From: a virus
Length of the DNA: 26,279 nucleotides
Reading direction: 5' to 3' (one strand)
IMG/VR virus record: IMGVR_UViG_3300042090_000404
Span: 1 to 26,279 of that record
Made by a program: the position numbers and the translations under genes. Under the pieces are notes generated by a model, which did not search any database, was not told the DNA's origin, and worked only from the letters and a program-made list of their open reading frames with translations. Below are positions 1 through 11,680 of the stretch, one piece after another (within the stretch, counting starts at the first letter, position 1; every line of letters begins with the position of its first letter).

Positions 1-843
1 ATTGTCGAAGGCTTTACTCCGTCCACGGTGGAGATTATTCGAAAGGCTCATGCCAGCGGATGCCGCTTCCTCTGCCTTGCTACTGAAGAACCGACGCCAC
101 GCGGATTTAATCATGGCCGTGATATCGAGATGGCATGGCGGCAGAAATATTTTGCGGATGCCGGCCCTTGCTTCGAAGGCATATTTCACCTGGTCCCTGG
201 AGAGCACGTCACTAAATGGTATGGCCAATGGGCCCCCTCTGCCTACATTGAACTTGGGTATGCGCCGACGTTATATCGACCTTTCCATGTCGAGCCGGAA
301 TTCGCCTTTGGGTTCTTTGGTTCGCTTTCGAAGCGCCGTTTGAGCATTTTGCGAAAGCTCGCGAAGTACATCGGGACAGAAAAGGCGATCCGGATTTGTA
401 GTGACTTCCCGACGCAATCGAAGCGCGATGAGATTATGCGCTCGGCGAAGGTAATCTTACAAATTCGTAAGTATGAGGAAATGGGCCTAGTCTCCTCCTC
501 GCGCTGCAACACGGCGCTTTCAGTGGGACGGCCGATCGTTGCAGAGCCTCATGCGCTTTCGAAGCCTTGGGATGAAATCGTTTGGTTCTCTAATTCTCTG
601 GACAAGTTCTTCGCGGATTGTGTGTTCGTTAGCTCGATGTGGAAATCTATTCACAAAGGGCAAATGGAAAAGTTTAAGACCAAACTTCCGCCGGAATTCT
701 GTGTCGGCGAGCCACTAAAGAAAATTCAAATTGATCTTTCAGAGCCTAAGCTTAAGGCGATTTTCACTCCGAATCAGACTTTTCCTCAAGCCTTTTCCGT
801 TCCTGGTGTAAAGAAGCAGGAAAGCGCTTTGCCGCAGTTCTAA
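1..843 (+). CDS. Glycosyltransferase-like protein (5' truncated by window)
   Basis: The frame is open from base 1 to TAA at 841-843, so about 280 C-terminal residues are seen and the true start lies upstream. The first in-window candidate (TTG at 28) is not convincing because the reading continues through it. The C-terminal half looks like the second Rossmann domain of a GT-B glycosyltransferase. There is a segment reading FGFFGSLSKRR after a 'GYAPTLYRP' linker. It is followed by an 'AKVILQIRKYEEMGL-SSSR-NTALSVGRPIVAE' type stretch, the usual place where the nucleotide-sugar donor is held and an R..E pair recurs. The substrate cannot be told. In phages such enzymes modify DNA, virion proteins or host surface glycans. 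It sits immediately upstream of structural genes, with 12 bases to the next start, so it is probably co-transcribed with them. The family call rests on motif resemblance only. Confidence 0.5.
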   Translation: MVEGFTPSTVEIIRKAHASGCRFLCLATEEPTPRGFNHGRDIEMAWRQKYFADAGPCFEGIFHLVPGEHVTKWYGQWAPSAYIELGYAPTLYRPFHVEPEFAFGFFGSLSKRRLSILRKLAKYIGTEKAIRICSDFPTQSKRDEIMRSAKVILQIRKYEEMGLVSSSRCNTALSVGRPIVAEPHALSKPWDEIVWFSNSLDKFFADCVFVSSMWKSIHKGQMEKFKTKLPPEFCVGEPLKKIQIDLSEPKLKAIFTPNQTFPQAFSVPGVKKQESALPQF

Positions 844-855
844 TGGAGTTTGTAT

Positions 856-1278
856 ATGAACCTCCATCAGATTGTTATAGGTGCGATTTCGGCTATTAAT
901 CCGACAACCTTCATCACAGTCCAAGTTTCGATGGGGTACACGACGAACCCAGACGGGTCCCGGACCCCTAAATATTGCGATCCGGTCACGGTCGAGGCGG
1001 ACATTCAGGAACTGTCGGCTGGCGAAATTCAACATCTTGACGGACTTAATATTCAAGGTCGCAAGATGGCATTTTACATAAATGGGAATATTGACGGGTT
1101 AATCCGTCCTAATCAACAGGGCGGCGATTTGATTACTGTGGAAGCGGGTGGGAATAATCCCCAGCTTCTCGGCTCGACTTGGCTAGTCGCGGTCATACTT
1201 GAATATTGGCCCGATTGGTGTAAGGTCGCTGCCGTTTTACAAAACAATACATCTTATCCATCTAATCCGACAGTCTAA
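856..1278 (+). CDS. Putative head-tail connector / stopper-like protein
   Basis: This is a 140-residue protein. ATG at 856 is chosen because GGAG at 845-848 sits 7 bases upstream; an in-frame TTG at 850 lacks that spacing. The sequence is soluble and beta-rich. It has a central 'LSAGEIQHLDGLNIQG' segment, then 'GNIDGLIRPNQQGGDLIT', and ends with 'STWLVAVILEYWPDWCKVAAVLQ'. That C-terminal pattern (GxxWLV-x-x-x-LE-W-P-x-W-x-x-V-x-x-x-LQ) is one I associate with small neck proteins of phages that have a DUF3383 sheath. Position fits as well: it precedes the terminator and sheath genes and follows what would be the head region. The assignment as a stopper or head-completion protein is inferred, and it may be another small neck component. 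Confidence 0.45.
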   Translation: MNLHQIVIGAISAINPTTFITVQVSMGYTTNPDGSRTPKYCDPVTVEADIQELSAGEIQHLDGLNIQGRKMAFYINGNIDGLIRPNQQGGDLITVEAGGNNPQLLGSTWLVAVILEYWPDWCKVAAVLQNNTSYPSNPTV

Positions 1279-1287
1279 GGATACGAC

Positions 1288-2415
1288 ATGAGCGTTACCC
1301 CGAATCAGATCGTGGCCTATGGCTGCGCACAAATGCCGGAAGCCGATAGTGTCACGGTCGGTGGCGCCGTCGATTTTACCAAGCGGGTTATGTTTGCTGA
1401 TCTCCCTTACGTTGGTCTCAATGGGTCCGCGAATACGGACACCATCGATATCGTGAGTGGGACTTCGGGAGATACCGGAGTCAAAATTCAGATTTCCGGG
1501 CGCGACGGCGCCGGTGTTATTCAGACCCCTGCCGTTGCGCAGCTTAACGGCACGGCTGTGGTTTCCTATAGCGTGCAGCTATTCCAGCGATTGGAATATG
1601 CGGTGATCACCGGTGGCAGCATAGGCGGGCTCTCTAATCCGGGAGGCACCGCGGCGACTTCGGACGTTGCAGCCATGTCGCATAAACGGATTGTGTCTGG
1701 ACACACGTCTAGTGGGTCTAGCGCCAACACGAGCGGGGTGACACCTCCGCTATTCGGATTGCAGGCCGGCGATGGCACGGCTGTGGGCGCAGCGGTATAC
1801 AATGGCTTAGGAGTGATTATCCGGATCACTGGAGGACCCGGAGCCGGGCAGCTTCGCATGGTCTCTGTGGGCTATAACGGGACCGCTTCCTATGGAACCG
1901 ATATCGTTGCCATTAACCGGGACTGGGGAGTCCTGCCTACAGGATCATCGACATACGATTTGGCATATGGAATGCTATTCGATATCCTGCCTAATCCAGT
2001 GGTCGCAATCACCCGGCTTTTCGTCAATTCGTCAGCGGACATACCTGGAGGAGCGACTAGGACTTATTATGACAAGTTCTTCTTAGTCAATACCAACGGG
2101 ACCACCAGCCTGGTAAATGCTCAGGTGGAATTTCTCAGTGAAAGCCCGGCACTTCCGATCGGCGCGGCGCTCGATTTAGCTCTTGGCTCTGCGCTAAATG
2201 ACAACACCACGATTGCCAATCGGCAGACCGCGCCCGCGAACACCGGCGGGTTTATAGTTCAGCCCTCCCTCATAACGGTTCCTGGAGGCGGGACCATTCC
2301 CTTTGGGAATGCTGCATCGGGCGCGGTTGCTTGTTGGGCCCGCTTGACGCTAAATCCGGGCACGGCGACCTATCAAGGCGCCGTCGATGCGCGGGCAATT
2401 GGTAATACAACGTGA
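1288..2415 (+). CDS. Phage structural protein, Gly/Thr-rich (probable neck or appendage component)
   Basis: This is a 375-residue protein starting at ATG 1288, with GGA at 1279-1281 as ribosome-binding site. It is rich in Gly, Thr, Ser and Val, with few Lys and no long helices. This is typical of beta-structured virion proteins. The first third ('GGAVDFTKRVMFADLP', 'IDIVSGTSGDTGVKIQISGRDGAG') reads like beta-sandwich strands. The middle is a low-complexity Gly/Ser/Thr stretch around residues 110-155. The C-terminus ('SGAVACWARLTLNPGTATYQGAVDARAIGN') resembles ends seen in hypothetical structural proteins just upstream of fibre genes in related phages. Its stop overlaps the next start (GTGA), so it is translationally coupled to the big S74 fibre. 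I infer that it could be the base plate or adaptor on which that fibre sits. No specific function is recognised. Confidence 0.55.
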   Translation: MSVTPNQIVAYGCAQMPEADSVTVGGAVDFTKRVMFADLPYVGLNGSANTDTIDIVSGTSGDTGVKIQISGRDGAGVIQTPAVAQLNGTAVVSYSVQLFQRLEYAVITGGSIGGLSNPGGTAATSDVAAMSHKRIVSGHTSSGSSANTSGVTPPLFGLQAGDGTAVGAAVYNGLGVIIRITGGPGAGQLRMVSVGYNGTASYGTDIVAINRDWGVLPTGSSTYDLAYGMLFDILPNPVVAITRLFVNSSADIPGGATRTYYDKFFLVNTNGTTSLVNAQVEFLSESPALPIGAALDLALGSALNDNTTIANRQTAPANTGGFIVQPSLITVPGGGTIPFGNAASGAVACWARLTLNPGTATYQGAVDARAIGNTT

Positions 2416-5400
2416 CGACTTTTCTCGATCTAGTTCGGGTCCTGGTTCCGACCGGAGGCACAGTTGCTTCCGTGTCCTTGGGCTTGCCTGTGGCGGGTTT
2501 CCTATCCTTCTCTGCGGCGGGAGGGGTAGATGGAACCACATACAGCTATTCGATCCAGGACCCGAATGGAAACTCCGAAATAGGGACGGGCGTTTGGTCG
2601 CTTTCCGGCAACACATTTAACCGCACAACAGTAACCAAGTCCACAAACAGTAACAATAGGATTAATCTGTCTGGGCAAGCGCAGCTTCGCGTTTGCTTGC
2701 GAGCGGAGGACACATTTGTCACGCTCGGCACTACCCAGATGAATCTTTCACAGTCCTATGGCACTATTGGTGGTCCGATTACATGGACTGGCGTTCAAAC
2801 GTTTAGCAGCGGCGCTTTTGTTTCTGGCGGGGAATTAGTTCTACAAAATACAATTGCACTTGAAATGAATAATAGTGCCGGATCAATTGTCGGCGGATCG
2901 GTTGGCAGTTTATTCCTTAAGTTTAGCGACAATAATACTTATTTAGACAGCTATGATCCTGGGTCTGAATTCATTTTTCGTGGTAACGCTTATGCCCAAT
3001 TGATGGTCATAGGTAGCAATGGCGCGGTCACCGCTGCGAGTTTCAACGGGATGTCCGGGCTTGCTAACCCGACCGGAACGATAGGGCTCACGACAGTAAA
3101 TGGCGTTGCGTCCACTGCGATGCGCAGCGATGCGGCTCCTGCGCTTTCGCAAGCGATTACTCCGACATGGACTGGGGTGCATAATTTTTCGACCAATTTG
3201 AATCTTACGGGAACTGAAGGGAATCAACTTGGTTGGCAAATAGGAGGATCAGGCCAGCAGTGGCACATGAATCTTAATTCGGGTGGATTGTTATATATTC
3301 AGGACGTAACACATAGCCGTTTCCCCTTCCAAGTTGCCGGGAGCGCGGCCAACGCTTCGATTTACATCGGCACGATCGGAGTGGGTATTACAACAACTAC
3401 TCCAAATGCTCTGTTGTCATTGGGAAACGCAATCACGACCATTAAGATTGCGGCTTATGATGATGGTGTATCTTATTATGGAATGGGGGTTAACTCAGGT
3501 CAGTTGACGTTTGGTGCCGGGCTTTCCACGGTTAGTGGAACGGCGCAGATGGTTCTCAATTTTAATGGCACATTCGGGGTTAAAAGTCAGATTGTTGTCG
3601 GTAATTTAGCCCAATTATTTACACCTTCGACTGCGATTTTTACTGCGCATTCAGGAACGAATCAAAATTTAAATATCAGCGCTCCTCGTAATCTTGCTTC
3701 AGGTGTGTCACTTTGGAGTGTAAATGATGCGGACAATACATATCAGCCATTGGAAATTGCGGGAAGTCAAATCAATCTTACCAGTGGCAATGTAGGCATT
3801 GGCGCTGCGGCCACTCCGGATACTTTGCTCACGGTTAATGCCAATACCGTAGCCACTTCGGTTGCGCCCCCGGCAGGCACCATACTTCATATTGTCGGTA
3901 GTGCGTCTAATCCAAATGCGCGAATTCAGGTCGATAACTTTGGCGCCGCCGGGTCCCCGATTCTTTTGATGCGCGCCACGGGCGGAAGCATTGGCTCGAT
4001 GTCCGCAGTAACGAGCGGTCAAAACTTATTTCAAATGCAGGGCCAAGGGTGGGATGGTTCCATTTATGGAGTGGGCTCTCTTATCAATGGATATGCGCAA
4101 GAAAATTGGTCAGGCACTGCGCATGGAAGTTACTTGTCGTTCATTACAGTACTTCCTACCACGACTACATTTGCGGAACAAATGCGGATTTGGGGCAGTG
4201 GAAATGTGCAAATAGGTTCGCCTTATACCAGCGATCTAAACTTTATTGGATTGACTGTATCTGGCAAAGCAAGCATCGGAGCGGCGCTTGCCCCGGATGC
4301 CATATTGACCGTTAATGCAAATTCCAGCGCGGCAGTGGCCCCTTCCGCAGGAACTAATCTTCATGTTGTAGGTGGAACGGGCGCGAGTCAAATGTTTCTT
4401 GATGCTTACGGGGGACAGGCGATTTATGCCGCCCGTAGAGCGCAGGGAAGCCTTGCGAGCCCATCCGCAATGCAAGCCAATCAAAATCTTTGTTCTTTCG
4501 CCGGCCTTGGTTATGGAGCGACTGGATACAGTTCCGGCGCCCGTGCGTTCATTGCTCTTTTGTCAGCACAAAATTGGACAGATACGGCGCAAGCCACTCA
4601 GATAAATTTTTCAACTACTGCGCTTAATAGCACCACTCTCGCGACAGCTATGTCAATTTTTCCGTCCGGAGATGTTGGAATAGGAACGACAACTGACACT
4701 AATGGCAGACTTATAGTTACAGGCGCAAGTCAGGCCCCATCAAATGCAGGTGGAGGTTTTGGCTCGGTTGCATTTACAACCGGGTCCGGATTGACCACAG
4801 ATAACCAGCTAATTTTCGGTGTTTACGATGGTGGGCCTTCCTCGTGGATTCAAGCGGTTAAGTCGGGAACTAGCTGGAATCAACTTGATCTAAATCCGAA
4901 TAGTGGCAATGTCAGTATCTCGGAGAACGCGCCCACCGGGGGCGGCCTTCTTATAGGAACTCCATCGGCGCCCGCAGGAACTTCGATTCTGGCGAGTCAG
5001 AATTTGACGTCCGGGAGTGCCTTAGTTGCGTCGTTTATTACCTCACAATGGAGATTTGTTGCTGCTGACGGTGTCATTCCTAGGATGATAGTGGAGGGTT
5101 ATAATGCCATTCCCGCGTTTGCCTTTGCGTATGCAGGGGGAAGCGGAGCAAGTCCTTCCGCGCCAGGAGCGGGACAACAGTTATGTAATTTTAATGCCAC
5201 TGGTTTTAATGGAACAGCATTTACAGGTGGCGCAGGGGGCATGCAAGTTTATGCAGATGCCGCCTGGTCTCCGACTTCGAATGGCACTCATCTTGATCTT
5301 TTTACTACTGCTAATGGCTCGACCTACCCAAGCCATCGTTCAGTGCTTCGCGTACAAGCTTCCGGGGGAATAAGTGTCAGCGCGGGAGGTACTTTTTATG

Positions 5401-7271
5401 ATGCTGGCGCAGGGGGCATTGTTTCCAATGGATTGATTTCATGTTTATATAATATCGGTGCCACTACGACTAATTTGATAACGACCATTGGAAGTGCTGG
5501 GGCCGGATTTGGTCATGCCGTAGCTTGGAATTTTTCTAGTGGATATGGAGAAACTGCATTTTTCAATAATATAGACGGCGGGAACACTTTTGATTATATC
5601 TTTTACGATTATACAAATAGCGCGGTGACTCCGTTATTTTATATTGCGAATACGGGTGGATTTTACACCAATTCGACTTTATCGCCTACCGCACTCCAGG
5701 GCTCCACATTTATAGCTTCAACTGCGGGGCAGGCAGGCACAGGCCTTTCGATTGGGTCTAATGCAGATACCTGGGTCGCGATGGCGATGACATATAACGA
5801 CTCTACATTGAGAGTCGTTCCGTATGGACCTTATGGCAATCAACTTACTCCCGCGCTGAATTGTGGAATGTTTCATGGTTATTACGGAGCGGGGGCGGGT
5901 TCGCCACTTGTGCAAGCCTCTACTCAGGTTGCGCATTTTGTGTATGGAAAGCAAAATGCTTTCAATTCGGGAGGCACATCCATCTATGGAGAAGGTGGTT
6001 GTTTGTGGTTAAATGCTTGGGGAGGTTGGAACGGCACTTCTCTCACTTTTACAAGGAGCGTCACTCTTACGAATGGCAGTCAGGTTCAAACCGTACCCGC
6101 GGCCCCGACTTCAAATACCTATTATGTGGGGATGCCGGTTTCCGGGACAGGTATTCCACAAGGTGTGACATTTACTGGTCAAATTTCTGGTACCGCATTA
6201 ACGGTTAACGGGACCTCCGTGACCGGCGGTGTTATTGCGGTTGGACAGCAAATCGCTGGTGCAGGGGTTTCAGGAAGCACATTCATCACTGCCGGCTCTG
6301 GGTCCAATTGGACCGTCAATATTTCTCAAACGGTCTCAGGCACTGTGACATTTACTGTTTTTGCAACTGTTATTATAGCGGTGAATGGATCCACATCCAT
6401 TACACTTAACAATCGTGCGAATTTGGGCACAACTCAAACTTTGACCTTTACTGCGGGGGTGGCGTCAGCAACTCCCGGTGACACGTTCCTTTTTGTGGGG
6501 CAAACTTTTACCCATGATCCGAATGGGGTGGGTTGTCTTGCGGAAACATTCGAAACAGTAGGTGCGGTTTATATCGGCTCTCTTTCTGTCCCTGATTTCG
6601 GGTTCAGAATACAATGCGGGCTAGCTACAAATCTGAATATCGGAGTTCCTTCTGGAACAACCCATGTGCTAGGATATATAGCAGAAATGGATTATTACGG
6701 GCAAGATCAAGGAGGGTCTAATGGCGGCATCGCCTTTTTAGCTGCGCAAGGGGCATCTGGCCGCGATTGGGGTCTGTTCGCTTCCGCTACTGGATTTACT
6801 ATGACAACGACAGGATCGATTGCTCAAATATCTGATCCGACTGCGAAAAAGAATATCACCAAAATTGAGAATGTCCGTGAAATAATCCGAGGCATTCACC
6901 CTGTTACTTTTGATTGGAAGGACGACTTTATAAAGCATAGTCAGGATTCTCCTTACAAAGGTTCCGGCAAGAATTGGGGGTTCATTTCTCATCATCATGA
7001 GGGAATAGGTGGCGTTGTCGATGCCTTCTCTGACCTTGGGTTAGATTTTAGTTCTCATCATCATCCTATTCATGAAATGAGGAAAACAGGACCGTATTTG
7101 CGTACAGGCAAAATCGGAGAGCATACTGGAAAGACTTATACCGCGTTTCAACATCTCGCCTTGCTTCCGGTAGTTTTTCGAGGCGTTCAGCAAGTATGGG
7201 ACGATTTAGACGCCTTAAAGGAACGGGTCTCAGTGCTAGAGGCCCAAAGCGCTTTGCCAACGGTACATTAA
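2412..7271 (+). CDS. Large appendage/tail fibre with C-terminal S74 intramolecular chaperone
   Basis: This 1619-residue fibre starts at GTG 2412, overlapping the upstream TGA. The N-terminus (about 1-110) is a small beta domain. The shaft consists of beta-rich Gly/Ser/Thr/Asn segments with recurring phage-fibre phrases: 'TWTGVQTFS' and 'TWTGVHNFS', and several '(V/A)xIG-x-(A/T)' starts. Two long tandem modules begin at residues 464 and 624. A Gly/Thr-rich inserted module occupies about 1254-1316. The last 146 residues (from Ser1474, 'SDPTAKKNI') match the S74 endosialidase-chaperone family: a conserved SDxxxKxNI start, 'HPVTFDWK', then 'TYTAFQHLALLPVVFRGVQQV' and a terminal coiled coil. In this family the chaperone trimerises the fibre and cleaves itself off at the Ser. 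The gene lies in the neck region, away from the other fibre genes, so a collar or neck whisker is as likely as a tail fibre. Confidence 0.85.
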   Translation: MTTFLDLVRVLVPTGGTVASVSLGLPVAGFLSFSAAGGVDGTTYSYSIQDPNGNSEIGTGVWSLSGNTFNRTTVTKSTNSNNRINLSGQAQLRVCLRAEDTFVTLGTTQMNLSQSYGTIGGPITWTGVQTFSSGAFVSGGELVLQNTIALEMNNSAGSIVGGSVGSLFLKFSDNNTYLDSYDPGSEFIFRGNAYAQLMVIGSNGAVTAASFNGMSGLANPTGTIGLTTVNGVASTAMRSDAAPALSQAITPTWTGVHNFSTNLNLTGTEGNQLGWQIGGSGQQWHMNLNSGGLLYIQDVTHSRFPFQVAGSAANASIYIGTIGVGITTTTPNALLSLGNAITTIKIAAYDDGVSYYGMGVNSGQLTFGAGLSTVSGTAQMVLNFNGTFGVKSQIVVGNLAQLFTPSTAIFTAHSGTNQNLNISAPRNLASGVSLWSVNDADNTYQPLEIAGSQINLTSGNVGIGAAATPDTLLTVNANTVATSVAPPAGTILHIVGSASNPNARIQVDNFGAAGSPILLMRATGGSIGSMSAVTSGQNLFQMQGQGWDGSIYGVGSLINGYAQENWSGTAHGSYLSFITVLPTTTTFAEQMRIWGSGNVQIGSPYTSDLNFIGLTVSGKASIGAALAPDAILTVNANSSAAVAPSAGTNLHVVGGTGASQMFLDAYGGQAIYAARRAQGSLASPSAMQANQNLCSFAGLGYGATGYSSGARAFIALLSAQNWTDTAQATQINFSTTALNSTTLATAMSIFPSGDVGIGTTTDTNGRLIVTGASQAPSNAGGGFGSVAFTTGSGLTTDNQLIFGVYDGGPSSWIQAVKSGTSWNQLDLNPNSGNVSISENAPTGGGLLIGTPSAPAGTSILASQNLTSGSALVASFITSQWRFVAADGVIPRMIVEGYNAIPAFAFAYAGGSGASPSAPGAGQQLCNFNATGFNGTAFTGGAGGMQVYADAAWSPTSNGTHLDLFTTANGSTYPSHRSVLRVQASGGISVSAGGTFYDAGAGGIVSNGLISCLYNIGATTTNLITTIGSAGAGFGHAVAWNFSSGYGETAFFNNIDGGNTFDYIFYDYTNSAVTPLFYIANTGGFYTNSTLSPTALQGSTFIASTAGQAGTGLSIGSNADTWVAMAMTYNDSTLRVVPYGPYGNQLTPALNCGMFHGYYGAGAGSPLVQASTQVAHFVYGKQNAFNSGGTSIYGEGGCLWLNAWGGWNGTSLTFTRSVTLTNGSQVQTVPAAPTSNTYYVGMPVSGTGIPQGVTFTGQISGTALTVNGTSVTGGVIAVGQQIAGAGVSGSTFITAGSGSNWTVNISQTVSGTVTFTVFATVIIAVNGSTSITLNNRANLGTTQTLTFTAGVASATPGDTFLFVGQTFTHDPNGVGCLAETFETVGAVYIGSLSVPDFGFRIQCGLATNLNIGVPSGTTHVLGYIAEMDYYGQDQGGSNGGIAFLAAQGASGRDWGLFASATGFTMTTTGSIAQISDPTAKKNITKIENVREIIRGIHPVTFDWKDDFIKHSQDSPYKGSGKNWGFISHHHEGIGGVVDAFSDLGLDFSSHHHPIHEMRKTGPYLRTGKIGEHTGKTYTAFQHLALLPVVFRGVQQVWDDLDALKERVSVLEAQSALPTVH
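3801..4700 (+). repeat. Two tandem long modules inside the S74 fibre shaft
   Basis: Two consecutive segments start with the same phrase: residues 464 onward (AAATPDTLLTVNA) and 624 onward (AALAPDAILTVNA). Both then run through 'AP-x-AGT-x-LH-(I/V)VG', 'QNL-F', 'YxxGSL/ARAF', 'NW(S/T)-TA' and 'FP/WGSG-(D/N)V-x-IG'. The DNA is also related at the start of each copy (3801-3843 and 4281-4322). A third, more divergent copy is suggested from about 5101 to 5390 ('SAPGAGQQLCNFNATGF', 'AWSPTSNGTHL'). The exact right-hand boundary is approximate. Confidence 0.6.
6171..6359 (+). repeat. Shared Gly/Thr-rich module, copy 4 (in S74 fibre)
   Basis: Residues about 1254-1316 of the fibre. Landmarks: FTGQISGTALTVNG, GGVIAVGQQIAGAGVSGSTFI, then a modified WTVNISQTVSGTVTF end. 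It is preceded by another Gly/Pro-rich module (YYVGMPVSGTGIPQG). Confidence 0.6.
6831..7271 (+). other. S74 chaperone domain and predicted self-cleavage site
   Basis: Encodes residues 1474-1619 of the fibre. Cleavage in this family occurs just before the conserved Ser of SDxxxK, here Ser1474. Lys1479 is in the usual position. The segment that in many relatives reads GFIAQEV is here 'WGFISHHHEGIGG', and a second His triad follows about 20 residues later. Confidence 0.75.
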
Positions 7272-7282
7272 GGACCCGCTTT

Positions 7283-7717
7283 ATGAAGATGACGAGACTA
7301 GAGGCTATGCAACGGTACGGTGCCCTTCAAACTATTGAAAAGGGCAAATCTGGAGATGGGAAAGAGCCTTGGGATTTGGATTGGCGGACCTACGAAGTTA
7401 TTACATACATACTTGTCGAGTTGAAAAAGTTCGTGGAGGGCTATCAGTCTGCCCGCAATAATCGCATGAAAATGAAAGCTCAAGGAGCAACCATTTCAAA
7501 GGATCAGTTTGGGTCTCCGCAAATTGATGATCCTCAGAAAGAGTTTGACTTCAGGCTCGAAGAGGAAGCTGCGCTTCAGGAGATTGTTTCTATTCGTTGG
7601 CCAAAAGAAAAATTAGACTTAAAACTAGACATTAACAAGACGATACCTCCGACCACATTGGCAGTGCTTGGTCCTGATATTGTGAATCTCGCGAAGGTCG
7701 AAATGGACGACGATTAA
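7283..7717 (+). CDS. Small charged protein of unknown function
   Basis: This is a 144-residue protein. ATG 7283 is chosen because AGGA at 7271-7274 lies 8 bases upstream and the start falls after the fibre's stop; the upstream in-frame extension would lie inside the S74 coding sequence. The protein is rich in Lys, Glu and Asp and is probably largely helical. 'DLDWRTYEVITYILVELKKFVEGY' forms an amphipathic helix near residues 31-55, and the protein ends in a 'MDDD' acidic tail. No motif is recognised. The stop TAA is followed at once by the ATG of the repeat protein, so the two are co-translated. Position between two probable appendage genes suggests an assembly factor or minor virion protein, but this is inference from context only. 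Confidence 0.6.
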   Translation: MKMTRLEAMQRYGALQTIEKGKSGDGKEPWDLDWRTYEVITYILVELKKFVEGYQSARNNRMKMKAQGATISKDQFGSPQIDDPQKEFDFRLEEEAALQEIVSIRWPKEKLDLKLDINKTIPPTTLAVLGPDIVNLAKVEMDDD

Positions 7718-8872
7718 ATGCTGGGTGAAGCTTTCGGTGAATTAGCCTTTGGGGAAATACCCCTCCCGATAGTCGTGGTTCAGGCTGATTTCGGAAGCTT
7801 CACTTCGGAAATGTTATCGACTTTTCGTCGCGATATACTTGCGCAGATTGAAAAAGAGACCGGCCTACGGGTCGATGTATCTCTTACATCCGAAAGCAAC
7901 CTTGGTTTTAGAACGGACATTGCTATCGTTGCAGAGGCAACGGCGTCCCTTAGAGCCGATACGGTTGCACGAATTGAAAATATTGCTTCCGCTCAAATCG
8001 ATATTTCCCTTAAGGACGAATCATTAATCGGTGTTCGTCATAATACAATGCCCAGCGTCGAGGCGGGAGGAGCGATTGTCGTCTCGACAAATAGCGCTTT
8101 GCCGGTTGAGGTTAAGGCGGGTATTCAATCGGACAGTGCCGCGGTAGGGGAGAGCCTATTGGGCCTCCGGACAGAGAACGCGGGACGCCTAGAGGAGCTT
8201 CCCGGAGTCGCAACGGATATCGCAGCGCGATCGGAGGCATTGCACGGACTCCGGACAGATGCCTCGCTGAATATTGAAATGGGAGGCGCGATCCTTGTAA
8301 CGTTTAATAGCGCCGCTCAGTTAGAGAGCCTTAGCGTTGTTCGTTCCGACAGCATCGGAACGCTTGAAATCCTAGCTGGGAATCAAATTGACCTAATCAG
8401 CGTTGCGGAAGCGATTAGCGGGATAAGCACAGATGCGGTCTGCCTTTTAGAATACAATGCGAATGTTCAGGCCGATAGCTCGGCCGCAAGCGAAACCCTT
8501 TTTGGAGTACAGACTGATTTCGCGGCTCCGATGGAGCTTTTGTTTAGTGTAGCATCTGATAGTGGTCTATGTATAGAACTTCTAACTCAAGGGAATTTTT
8601 TAACCAACAGCGTTGGTTATCTTGAAATTCTTTGCAATGTGCGCAGTGATATTTCTGCGCCTGTTGAATCGACCTTTTTCCTCATCCCGCTGCCGACGAC
8701 TGCCAAAACGATCATCCGGCAATACGAGGCACGTTCCAAAGTAGAACAATACAAAGCGGTCACTCAGATTTTGGCAGAGATCGCCCCGGTTTGCGCGAAA
8801 ACAAACATTACCCAAGCGGAAGCAGTTACATTAATATTGAAGGCATTGAACGCTAAGACGAAGGTTGAATAA
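7718..8872 (+). CDS. Protein made of 21 copies of a 14-residue D-x5-E repeat
   Basis: This is a 384-residue protein. Residues about 20-320 are tandem repeats with consensus (V/L)-x-(S/T)-D-x5-E-x-L-x-G. The Asp (or Asn/Glu) column falls at 24, 39, 53, 67, 81, 95, 109, 125, 139, 153, 167, 181, 197, 211, 225, 239, 253, 267, 281, 297 and 311. The spacing is 14 except one 15 and three 16-residue steps, and a Glu lies six residues after each (seven after the first). The last 55 residues are a helical, Lys/Ala-rich tail ('RQYEARSKVEQYKAVTQILAE'). I have seen comparable 'D...P-x-E-(W)-L-(A/G)' repeats in hypothetical proteins of alphaproteobacterial phages, with no known function. A beta-solenoid or fibre shaft is plausible. 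It is adjacent to the S74 fibre and an Ig-like protein in the neck region. Confidence 0.7.
   Translation: MLGEAFGELAFGEIPLPIVVVQADFGSFTSEMLSTFRRDILAQIEKETGLRVDVSLTSESNLGFRTDIAIVAEATASLRADTVARIENIASAQIDISLKDESLIGVRHNTMPSVEAGGAIVVSTNSALPVEVKAGIQSDSAAVGESLLGLRTENAGRLEELPGVATDIAARSEALHGLRTDASLNIEMGGAILVTFNSAAQLESLSVVRSDSIGTLEILAGNQIDLISVAEAISGISTDAVCLLEYNANVQADSSAASETLFGVQTDFAAPMELLFSVASDSGLCIELLTQGNFLTNSVGYLEILCNVRSDISAPVESTFFLIPLPTTAKTIIRQYEARSKVEQYKAVTQILAEIAPVCAKTNITQAEAVTLILKALNAKTKVE
7775..8680 (+). repeat. 42-bp coding repeat array (21 units, protein-level)
   Basis: The 14-residue periodicity is clear in the protein, but the DNA copies have diverged in codon choice. The array is therefore old and selected for protein shape rather than a recent slippage product. 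Two-residue insertions occur in the repeats before residues 125, 197 and 297; the first two carry the shared phrase GGAI-(V/L)-V. Confidence 0.8.
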
Positions 8873-9208
8873 ATGCCCGCCTCCCTGATCTCTCAGACGA
8901 GCCTCAACCGGGGCGCAACGATTCTTTTCAACACCACGTTTTATGATCCCTATGGCAACATTATTCAGCCGGTCTCCGCGTTTGTGAATATCGATTATCC
9001 CAATCCCGATGGTTCGCGGGCCCAAGTCACTCTTACTATGGGGGCTTCGTTCCCTCCGGCGGTTAATTGGACCGCGGAATGGGACTCTCGCGGTGCGGGT
9101 ACTGGCACTGTGTTCTGGTCAATTCATACTAATCCATCCGTCCCAATCGCTGTGGAGGATGGGCAGTTTCAATTAACAGCTAATCAAGCCAACCTTACTA
9201 CATTTTAA
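8873..9208 (+). CDS. Small Ig-like virion protein
   Basis: This is a 111-residue protein. Its ATG immediately follows the TAA of the repeat protein, and its own TAA overlaps the next ATG (TAATG). The pattern 'LNRGATILFNTTFYDPYGNII-P', 'VNIDYPNPDGSRAQVTL', 'VNWTAEWDSRGAGTGTVFWSIH', 'VEDGQFQLTANQANL' alternates hydrophobic and polar residues like the seven strands of an immunoglobulin-type sandwich. Small proteins with the same WTAxWDSRGA core occur beside DUF3383-sheath genes in related phages. I therefore take it to be a minor virion decoration or neck protein. No catalytic motif is seen. Confidence 0.55.
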   Translation: MPASLISQTSLNRGATILFNTTFYDPYGNIIQPVSAFVNIDYPNPDGSRAQVTLTMGASFPPAVNWTAEWDSRGAGTGTVFWSIHTNPSVPIAVEDGQFQLTANQANLTTF

Positions 9209-9927
9209 TGGCAACACTCGCTCCGAACCAATCGCAAATACAAACTGTCCTGCGGTCTTTCCTGCTTTCCGTCCTTCCGGGAGGCGTAGAGGTTGTGCAG
9301 GGTCAGGACAACCTTGTTTCGGAGCCTGCGGGCGCAGATTTCGTGGTTATGACCCCGCTCTCGCGAGACCGTATTGAGACGAACGTAGACACGTTCGCGG
9401 ACATTTCTTTTACGGGCTCGATTACCGGAAGCCTTTTGAGCATTACAGAAGTGCAGTTTGGGGTCCTCGGGACTTCGACCATGCCCGAAGTATTCGGCAC
9501 GATGGTGAATGCCGGCACTTATGTAACAGGGCAAGTGTCCGGGACAATAGGCGGGGTCGGGGTCTACACAGTCACAGGCACTCAAACGAGCGGCGTCCAA
9601 CCGATGGCTGCTGGCCAAGTCTACTTCCTGCAACCGACCAAGATCAGGATGCAACTTGACGTTCATGGACCGAATTCTAGTGATAATGCCCAAACGATTT
9701 CGACTCTCTTTCGAGATCAATTTGCGGTATCGTTCTTTCAGAATTCCGGTTATGATGTTTGGCCTTTATATGCAGATGATCCTAAACAAATTCCTTTCCC
9801 CAACGCAGAAATGTTGATTGAATATCGTTGGGTGATTGATGCGGAGTTGCAAGCAAATCAGGTGGTGGGAGGGTTCCCACAGCAATTCGCAAATACATTC
9901 AACGTTAATCTAATCCAGGTTCAGTGA
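9208..9927 (+). CDS. Neck / tail terminator protein (gp12-like, LIC_12616 type) with inserted module
   Basis: This 239-residue protein starts at ATG 9208, overlapping the upstream TAA. The N-terminus ('LRSFLLSVLPGGVEVVQGQDNLV', then 'DFVVMTPLSRDRIETNVDT') and C-terminus ('MQLDVHGPNSSDNAQTISTLFRD', 'VWPLYADDPKQIPF', 'QQFANTFNV') match the phage neck terminator family. This family caps the tail tube and connects the tail to the head. Residues about 66-136 interrupt this fold with a Gly/Thr-rich module ('FTGSITGSLLSIT ... VSGTIGGVGVYTV') that also appears in the sheath, the J-like wedge and the S74 fibre. The gene lies 7 bases before the sheath gene, the expected order for terminator then sheath. 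Confidence 0.8.
   Translation: MATLAPNQSQIQTVLRSFLLSVLPGGVEVVQGQDNLVSEPAGADFVVMTPLSRDRIETNVDTFADISFTGSITGSLLSITEVQFGVLGTSTMPEVFGTMVNAGTYVTGQVSGTIGGVGVYTVTGTQTSGVQPMAAGQVYFLQPTKIRMQLDVHGPNSSDNAQTISTLFRDQFAVSFFQNSGYDVWPLYADDPKQIPFPNAEMLIEYRWVIDAELQANQVVGGFPQQFANTFNVNLIQVQ
9403..9615 (+). repeat. Shared Gly/Thr-rich module, copy 1 (in terminator)
   Basis: Residues 66-136 of the terminator. Landmarks are FTGSITGS-LSIT at the start and SGTIGGVGVYTV near the end. The core SGTxGGVGVY is the same as in the J-like wedge copy. Confidence 0.7.
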
Positions 9928-9934
9928 GGACAAT

Positions 9935-11680
9935 ATGACCACGATCCCGGTCGGCCAACTTATCAATGTGACTCCAAACGTCCTTCCTGCTGGTGGGGAC
10001 GCTTTGTTCTTGAATGGGTTAATCCTGACAACCTCTACGGGTCGCGTGCCTTATGGATCGGTGCAATCTTTCCCGACCGCGGCGGCAGTGGCCACGTTTT
10101 TCGGAGCCTCTTCGAAAGAGGCGTCCCTGGCATCCGTGTATTTTAACGGATACATAGGCGCATCGGCAACGCCAGGGGCTCTTCTGTTCACTACTTATCC
10201 GAACACAGCCATAGCTGCGTTCCTCCGGGGAAGCAGCGTTGCGTCCCTTACCCTGACGCAGTTGCAGGTGCTTTCAGGGACACTTAACCTGACGGTCGAT
10301 GGCTATGCGAGGAACGTAGCTAACATCAGCCTTGCCGCCGCGGTCTCTTTCTCGAATGCCGCGACGATCATGCAGACTGCCTTAAACGGCTCTGCGCCGG
10401 CTAACCTGTCCTCGTTTACGGGCTCGCTTGCCGGTGGCACGATGACGGTTACAGGGCTCACGAGTGGCACGATTAACCCCGGAACGACGGTTAATGGAAC
10501 TGGCCTTAGCTCTCCCTCCGGCGTGATCATCCTCGCGCAGCTTTCTGGGTCCACGGGAGGAACCGGGACATACACCGTTACGTCGGCGGGCACCCTAGGA
10601 AGTCAGACCTTAAGCACGGCAGCGGTCCCGATCACGGTGACTTATGACTCCGTCTCAGGAGGCTTTTTATTCACCTCAGGGAACACCGGAAACCTGTCTA
10701 GCATTCAATATGCGACGGGCCTGCTTGCTACGTCCCTGAACCTTACTCAAGCGACGGGTGGCGTTATTTCGCAGGGTACGGCGGCCGGAACTCCGGGGCC
10801 GTTTATGAGCTCGATCATTAACATCACCCAGAATTGGGCGCTCTTTATGACCGCCTTCAATCCGGACTCGGTGGTCGGGGTGAACACTAACAAGTTGCTC
10901 TTCGCGCTATGGACTTCGCAACAGAACGATCGTTATGGTTATGTTGCTTGGGATACCGATGCAAGCCCGACTGTTACTGTTCCCGCGGCCTCTAGCCTAG
11001 GCCAGGAGGTTATTGCGGCCGGTTATTCGGGAACGTTCTGCATTTGGGAGCCTTCCGAGACCTATGTGGCCGCTTTCATCTTGGGCATTGCGGCTGCGCT
11101 CGACTTCTCGCAAACCAATGGGCGGGCGACCTTCGCCTATCGCAGTCAATCCGGTCTAACTCCGGGGGTTACAGACCCGACGACGGCCTCTAACCTCATC
11201 GCAAATGGCTACAATTTCTATGGAGCCTATGCGACGGCGAATCAGAACTTCCAGTGGCTGCAACCGGGCTCCGTCTCTGGGCCGTTCGTTTGGATGGATA
11301 GCTATGTTAATCAAATCCAGATGAATGCGCAATTCCAACTCACCCTTGCGGACTTGGAATCTAATACTGGATCGATACCGTACACACCAGCCGGATATTC
11401 GATCATCGCGAATTCCCTTCTAACCCCGATCAATGCCGCGTTGAACTTCGGAACGATCCGGGCAGGTGTGACACTTACATCGTCCGAAATTTTGGAGATC
11501 AATTCGGTGGCTGGCAATAATAACGCAGCCAACGCGGTCTCTACTCGTGGTTGGTATTTGCAAGTGTCTGATCCGGGCGCAGCGGTTCGCATTGCGCGCG
11601 GGTCTCCGGTGATGAACTTCTGGTATGCTGATGGTGAAGCGGTCCAGATGATGAGCCTTAACTCTATCGATGTCCAATAA
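9935..11680 (+). CDS. Contractile tail sheath protein (DUF3383 family)
   Basis: This is a 581-residue protein starting at ATG 9935, preceded by GAGGA at 9926-9930. The N-terminus ('IPVGQLINVTPNVLPAGGDALFLNGLIL', then 'VPYGSVQSFPTAAAVATFFGASS', 'GALLFTTYP') is diagnostic of the DUF3383 sheath-like family. The C-terminal part ('WYLQVSDPGAAVRIARGSP', 'YADGEAVQMMSLNSIDVQ') is the conserved sheath domain that links neighbouring subunits. Sheath subunits surround the tube and contract on infection, so the particle is a myovirus. Residues about 159-229 are a Gly/Ser/Thr-rich module inserted in the N-terminal region after a strand pair resembling 'GTLNLTVDG'. The flanking strands continue as 'VPITVTYDSVSGGF', so the module looks like a surface insertion. 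The tube gene follows after a strong AGGAGG ribosome-binding site. Confidence 0.9.
   Translation: MTTIPVGQLINVTPNVLPAGGDALFLNGLILTTSTGRVPYGSVQSFPTAAAVATFFGASSKEASLASVYFNGYIGASATPGALLFTTYPNTAIAAFLRGSSVASLTLTQLQVLSGTLNLTVDGYARNVANISLAAAVSFSNAATIMQTALNGSAPANLSSFTGSLAGGTMTVTGLTSGTINPGTTVNGTGLSSPSGVIILAQLSGSTGGTGTYTVTSAGTLGSQTLSTAAVPITVTYDSVSGGFLFTSGNTGNLSSIQYATGLLATSLNLTQATGGVISQGTAAGTPGPFMSSIINITQNWALFMTAFNPDSVVGVNTNKLLFALWTSQQNDRYGYVAWDTDASPTVTVPAASSLGQEVIAAGYSGTFCIWEPSETYVAAFILGIAAALDFSQTNGRATFAYRSQSGLTPGVTDPTTASNLIANGYNFYGAYATANQNFQWLQPGSVSGPFVWMDSYVNQIQMNAQFQLTLADLESNTGSIPYTPAGYSIIANSLLTPINAALNFGTIRAGVTLTSSEILEINSVAGNNNAANAVSTRGWYLQVSDPGAAVRIARGSPVMNFWYADGEAVQMMSLNSIDVQ
10409..10621 (+). repeat. 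Shared Gly/Thr-rich module, copy 2 (in sheath)
   Basis: Residues 159-229 of the sheath. Landmarks: FTGSLAGGTMTVT, SGTI-PG, NGTGL, then SGSTGGTGTYTVTS. Confidence 0.7.

What the first reader, a model, noticed from the sequence alone, without database searches (positions are those of the whole stretch)
7718..8872. Protein of 21 near-perfect 14-residue D-x5-E repeats
An acidic or Asn column recurs every 14 residues for 21 units, with only one 15-residue and three 16-residue steps, and a Glu six residues later (seven in the first unit). Such a strict ladder over about 290 residues suggests a regular solenoid or fibre with stacked acidic residues, perhaps binding metal ions. It sits in a neck-appendage-like cluster. 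I know of related 'D..P-E-W-L' repeats in phage hypothetical proteins but of no assigned function or structure.
Basis: partly seen in the sequence, partly recalled or inferred. Interest (0 to 1): 0.75.

Follow-up and report, generated by a model that had tools for sequence, protein, structure and literature searches.

The report
Phage appendage protein with 14-residue repeats
The gene encodes a real, very regular repeat protein that belongs to a large, unnamed family found next to fibre genes in many uncultured bacteriophages, where it is most likely a structural stalk or linker of an appendage mounted on the virus head or neck; its fold and exact role are still unknown.

Summary
ORF 7718-8872 (384 aa) has 21 units; the D/N/E column steps by 14 except one 15 and three 16, with Glu six residues later (seven in unit 1). 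Chain length 20 versus at most 4 in 5000 shuffles. The window is a Bcep781-type myophage fragment. A cassette (p375, S74-chaperone fibre, p173, this protein, p111) lies between the neck gene of the Bcep781 gp06 family and the neck-terminator gene, which are neighbours in 13 relatives. Pattern scans found dozens of proteins with the same unit (V-R-A-D-A-A-x-P-L-E-S-L-A-G) in uncultured phages, none detected in 50,697 cultured phage records. An independently trained profile finds the repeat in 38 of 66 loci fetched by p375, 0 of 13 controls. Five relatives carry PF23148 (GP4 fibre-tail adaptor Gp77) one or two genes downstream. Flanks include P22-type and other portals, scaffold/capsid, terminase, neck genes. 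Best reading: structural stalk or linker of a head/neck-mounted fibre, a swappable cassette. No heptad signal; short-strand hydrophobic alternation and Pro/Gly in 91% of units favour beta structure. AlphaFold2 was uninformative (pLDDT 59, pTM 0.25). Metal binding is untested. New repeat family of a known kind.

The parts
7718..8872 (+). rep14 protein, 384 aa: short hydrophobic/Gly N-terminal motif (residues 1-22), 21 units (about 23-322), 62-residue C-terminal tail
7784..8683 (+). array of 21 fourteen-residue units, D/N-x5-E
8873..9208 (+). p111, small Ig-like-sized protein at the position of the Gp77 fibre-tail adaptor of relatives; homology to Gp77 not established
1288..2415 (+). p375, conserved cassette partner; relatives in 66 viral contigs
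2412..7271 (+). fibre, 1619 aa, C-terminal Peptidase_S74 (endosialidase chaperone)
7196..7717 (+). p173, unknown; the listed ATG overlaps the fibre gene, a later Met (about 7283) may be the true start
850..1278 (+). neck/head protein of the Bcep781 gp06 family (phrog_1912), left border of the insertion
9208..9927 (+). neck terminator (PF23961, phrog_1876; Bcep781 gp05 family), right border
1..843 (+). truncated gene 54% identical to the gene just upstream of p375 in L133; glycosyltransferase-like by inspection only

Best explanation
Rep14 is a virion structural protein of an appendage mounted at the head or neck. Its 14-residue units form an elongated, mostly beta, repeat body that acts as a stalk or linker, with the N-terminal hydrophobic/Gly motif and the C-terminal tail as docking ends. 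It works together with p375, the S74-matured fibre and a small adaptor (Gp77-like in relatives, probably p111 here), all carried as one exchangeable cassette inside the head/neck gene block. Shown: repeat, family, gene linkage, head/neck genomic position. Inferred: presence in the virion, stalk role, beta fold, p111 as the adaptor.
For: Cassette sits between two genes that adjoin in 13 relatives (Bcep781 gp06/gp05 overlap). Profile trained without p375-derived contigs hits 38 of 66 p375 loci (29 of the 57 not already known from the repeat scan), nearly always downstream on the same strand; 0 of 13 controls, 0 in reversed ORFs. Flanks: P22-type portal (L063), Phage_portal (L034), scaffold and capsid (L074), terminase (L007), Bcep781 gp06-like (L133). 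PF23148 Gp77 over its cut-off in L007, L008, L033, L134, L136 directly after rep14 (after p375 in L008), with solved relative 8jou. Fibre partner has S74. Hydrophobicity shows periods 2-2.8 and no 3.5/3.6 signal; 91% of family units hold Pro or Gly.
Against: No structure: AlphaFold2 gave pLDDT 37 alone and 59 (pTM 0.25, one long helix) with 42 family rows. No virion proteomics. p111 itself does not match PF23148. 28 of 66 p375 loci show no rep14 (12 of them have 2.3 kb or less downstream). Period-2 signal falls to p 0.13 in the window fragment when the D and E columns are masked; period 2.8 remains at p 0.001.
Confidence: 0.6

Rival explanations
1. Rep14 is a trimeric alpha-helical coiled coil like T4 fibritin whiskers, 14 residues being two heptads.
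For: 14 is twice 7; the family-guided AlphaFold2 model is one long helix, though at pLDDT 59 and pTM 0.25.
Against: Identity at lag 7 is below chance (z -1.9); hydrophobicity has no 3.5 or 3.6 signal once D/E columns are masked (p 0.56 and 0.52; 0.1% of family variance); 91% of family units and 17 of 21 window units hold Pro or Gly; Pro fills position 7 in 51% of family units.
Confidence: 0.12
2. Rep14 is a receptor- or glycan-binding adhesin (or head decoration) whose stacked acidic columns bind metal ions or sugars.
For: Two acidic columns, D 77% and E 82% across the family; net charge -25 in the core; a weak glycine-rich-domain match in one longer relative (L148, below cut-off); a head-decoration profile matches the neighbouring fibre of L133.
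Against: Asp is often Asn or lost; no RTX or other calcium-repeat family match; nothing tested binding.
Confidence: 0.15
3. Rep14 is an assembly factor (chaperone, ruler or scaffold for the fibre) that is not kept in the virion.
For: It lies between the fibre and adaptor-position genes; the number of [DN]-x5-E units varies from about 4 to 35 among relatives, as a ruler might.
Against: Fusion to long extra N-terminal regions and, in L133, to a C-terminal region resembling p111 suits a structural protein better.
Confidence: 0.1

Closest known systems
Gp77 fibre-tail adaptor (PF23148, podophage GP4, PDB 8jou) and its gene neighbourhood
   Same: Five relatives carry Gp77 directly after rep14 (or after p375 in L008); window p111 has the same size and position
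   Different: Rep14 itself is not Gp77; window p111 gives no Pfam match
Neck fibres of Anabaena myophage A-1(L) (gp82/gp81/gp80, PMC10966104) and T4 fibritin whiskers
   Same: Appendage mounted at the neck of a contractile-tailed phage, built from several co-encoded proteins
   Different: A-1(L) makes a bead chain from many copies of gp81; here one chain carries many 14-residue units; fibritin is a coiled coil (own knowledge)
Head fibres of flagellotropic phage 7-7-1 (PMC12796354)
   Same: Head-mounted fibres; their proteins are stated to be unknown
   Different: No sequence link tested; different phage type
Adenovirus fibre shaft (triple beta-spiral, about 15-residue repeats)
   Same: Works-like analogy only: short hydrophobic repeats in a fibrous shaft
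   Different: No sequence match in the PDB search; period differs; trimer not tested
14-residue C-terminal repeats of Aeromonas Casjensviridae tail proteins (BUCT552, 13AC503A)
   Same: Exact 14-residue period
   Different: Different motif (LRSTVQAELLAPYN; YLPDLVSPYGLTAG), attached to a Phage-tail_3 tail protein

Membership tests
Rep14 family defined here (D-x3-P-[LIV]-E 14-mers in uncultured phages) | Profile of 14-residue units trained on several loci | tested here: met
   Window E 2e-45 with the full profile, which includes its own units; tblastn of the window protein alone reaches L007 (best E 5e-11) and L008 (2e-9)
Rep14 family defined here | Linkage to p375 | tested here: met
   p375 lies upstream of rep14 in the same block of the window; 38 of 66 p375 loci hold rep14
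Gp77 adaptor (PF23148) for p111 | Score over Pfam cut-off 27 bits | tested here: not met
   No match for window p111 or the window; only weak hints
Known Pfam/PHROGs/NCBIfam family for rep14 | Significant match | tested here: not met
   Best E 0.19 Pfam, 0.075 PHROGs, none NCBIfam
RTX/beta-roll calcium repeats | Nonapeptide GGxGxD repeats | tested here: not met
   Period 14, no Pfam match
Coiled-coil whisker (fibritin type) | Heptad hydrophobic pattern | tested here: not met
   Lag 7 below chance; no 3.5 period after masking the acidic columns; Pro/Gly in most units
Triple beta-spiral fibre shaft | Trimeric beta-spiral structure | not testable with these tools
   No multimer prediction; no PDB sequence match
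Beta-solenoid | Stacked coils, one per repeat | tested here: inconclusive
   AlphaFold2 low confidence

The most novel reading that the evidence does not exclude
The 14-residue D/N-x5-E unit is an undescribed beta repeat fold, used by uncultured phages with P22-type, Phage_portal-type and Bcep781-type heads as an exchangeable stalk that joins head- or neck-mounted fibres to a Gp77-like adaptor.
Probability: 0.4. Interest if true: 0.68.

Novelty: new variant of a known kind. Interest (0 to 1): 0.52.

Why it matters
It names a widespread, unannotated phage protein family, with no hit in Pfam, PHROGs, NCBIfam or 50,697 cultured phage records in the searches made here, and ties it to a conserved appendage cassette that moves between phages with different portals and tails. 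Head and neck fibres are poorly understood (the head-fibre proteins of phage 7-7-1 are stated to be unknown, PMC12796354); this gives concrete genes to test.

Tried and rejected
tblastn of the whole protein in cultured phages and the search for related loci with it: nothing. Consensus repeat queries found only Aeromonas tail proteins with a different 14-mer, or nothing. PDB sequence search with the family profile: one chance-level hit. Genome contigs triple-unit scan: five stretches, none in a rep14-like ORF, all judged chance. Single-sequence and family-guided AlphaFold2: uninformative, so no fold search was run. Recent DNA expansion rejected by low nucleotide identity between units. Mapping the flanking neck genes onto E217 gp28/gp29 by profile failed; only Bcep781 gp06/gp05 is supported. 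Literature searches for 14-residue repeats in phage proteins found nothing relevant.

Full report
Observation. ORF 7718-8872 is intact. Lag-14 autocorrelation is 9.4 standard deviations above shuffles. The longest [DNE]-x5-E chain is 20, against at most 4 in 5000 shuffles and at most 3 in about 935 control ORFs. Units are diverged (25% aa identity, best nucleotide pair 57%), so the two acidic columns and the spacing are kept by selection rather than by recent duplication.

Surroundings. The window is a complete 26.3-kb virus record. The sheath (DUF3383 type, phrog_205), tail, hub and wedge genes place it with Bcep781-like and Pbunavirus-like myophages. In the relatives found through the neck terminator, the gene of the Bcep781 gp06 family and the terminator gene adjoin wherever both are on the contig; in Bcep781 they overlap. 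In the window a 7.9-kb block lies between them: p375, a 1619-aa fibre with an S74 chaperone, p173, the repeat protein (rep14) and p111.

Relatives. Scans for two D-x3-P-[VI]-E units 14 residues apart in uncultured viral contigs gave many proteins with the same unit; the family profile is R-[AST]-D(77%)-A-A-[ALIV]-P(51%)-[LIV]-E(82%)-[SW]-L-[AG]-[SG]-[VL]. [DN]-x5-E unit counts run from about 4 to 35. No match was detected in 50,697 cultured phage records with the window protein, the consensus repeats, p375 or the rep14 protein of L133; more diverged members could have been missed.

Linkage. p375 homologues lie next to rep14 in loci found only by the repeat. A p375 query then gave 66 loci; a repeat profile trained without those contigs found rep14 in 38 of them, against 0 of 13 control loci and 0 in reversed ORFs. 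Nine of the 38 were contigs already seen in the repeat scan, leaving 29 of 57. Twelve of the 28 negative loci have 2.3 kb or less of sequence downstream. In nearly all positives rep14 is downstream of p375 on the same strand. Flanking genes are head or neck genes of unrelated types: P22 portal, Phage_portal, scaffold and major capsid, terminase, Bcep781 gp06-like. In L133 and L150 the gene before p375 resembles the window gene at 1-843 (54% identity for L133; L150 seen by eye).

Adaptor. The small protein after rep14 in L007, L033, L134 and L136 (after p375 in L008) is PF23148, described by Pfam as the podophage GP4 fibre-tail adaptor Gp77, with a solved chain 8jou_D. Window p111 has the same position and size but no Pfam match; its only hints are a phmmer E of 0.09 to the L007 adaptor and a shuffle-tested resemblance (1 in 1000) to the C-terminus of the L133 repeat protein.

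Fold. AlphaFold2 on the single sequence gave pLDDT 37; on seven exact units with 42 in-register family rows it gave one helix at pLDDT 59, pTM 0.25, which I treat as uninformative. Hydrophobicity shows periods 2 and 2.8 and no 3.5/3.6 signal after masking the acidic columns, lag-7 identity is below chance, and 91% of family units hold Pro or Gly. This favours short beta strands and argues against a heptad coiled coil. It does not identify a fold.

Mechanism. I consider it most likely (0.6) that rep14 is the repeat stalk or linker of a head- or neck-mounted fibre whose tip is the S74-matured fibre and whose socket is an adaptor at the p111 position. The metal-ladder idea is possible but has no support beyond the acidic columns.

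Comparison. Neck fibres are documented in A-1(L) (PMC10966104) and head fibres in 7-7-1 (PMC12796354), so the kind is known; the repeat family and its cassette appear undescribed in the libraries searched here.

Noticed in passing
window 9935-11680 (sheath aa 151-235), 9208-9927 (terminator aa 61-138), 2412-7271 (fibre aa 1233-1272): A Gly/Ser-rich beta module is shared by sheath and terminator (35% over 72 aa, E 6e-7) and weakly by the fibre: a possible mobile surface domain inserted in several virion proteins.
   Followed up: partly
window 1-843: Truncated gene, glycosyltransferase-like by eye but without Pfam match, next to the cassette here and in L133 and L150; it may modify the appendage.
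   Followed up: partly
L006, L010, L013, L015, L016, L058, L073: Proteins of about 600-1200 aa (some cut by locus ends) with D-H-x-I-P-V-E-W 14-mers; several begin with a lectin-like-looking region and some carry separate RVS..VEVL repeats.
   Followed up: no
L111, L120, L148, L153, L045: C-terminal tails of rep14 proteins carry a second, about 9-residue repeat (PGRxRLL).
   Followed up: no
L159:5459-7963: In Microcystis phage Mwe-JY26 the gene before the Gp77-like adaptor gene (Pfam not run on it; found by tblastn with the L007 adaptor and by HMM) is an 834-aa protein with other repeats (D-x-F-G type), suggesting that the slot before the adaptor is often filled by repeat proteins.
   Followed up: partly
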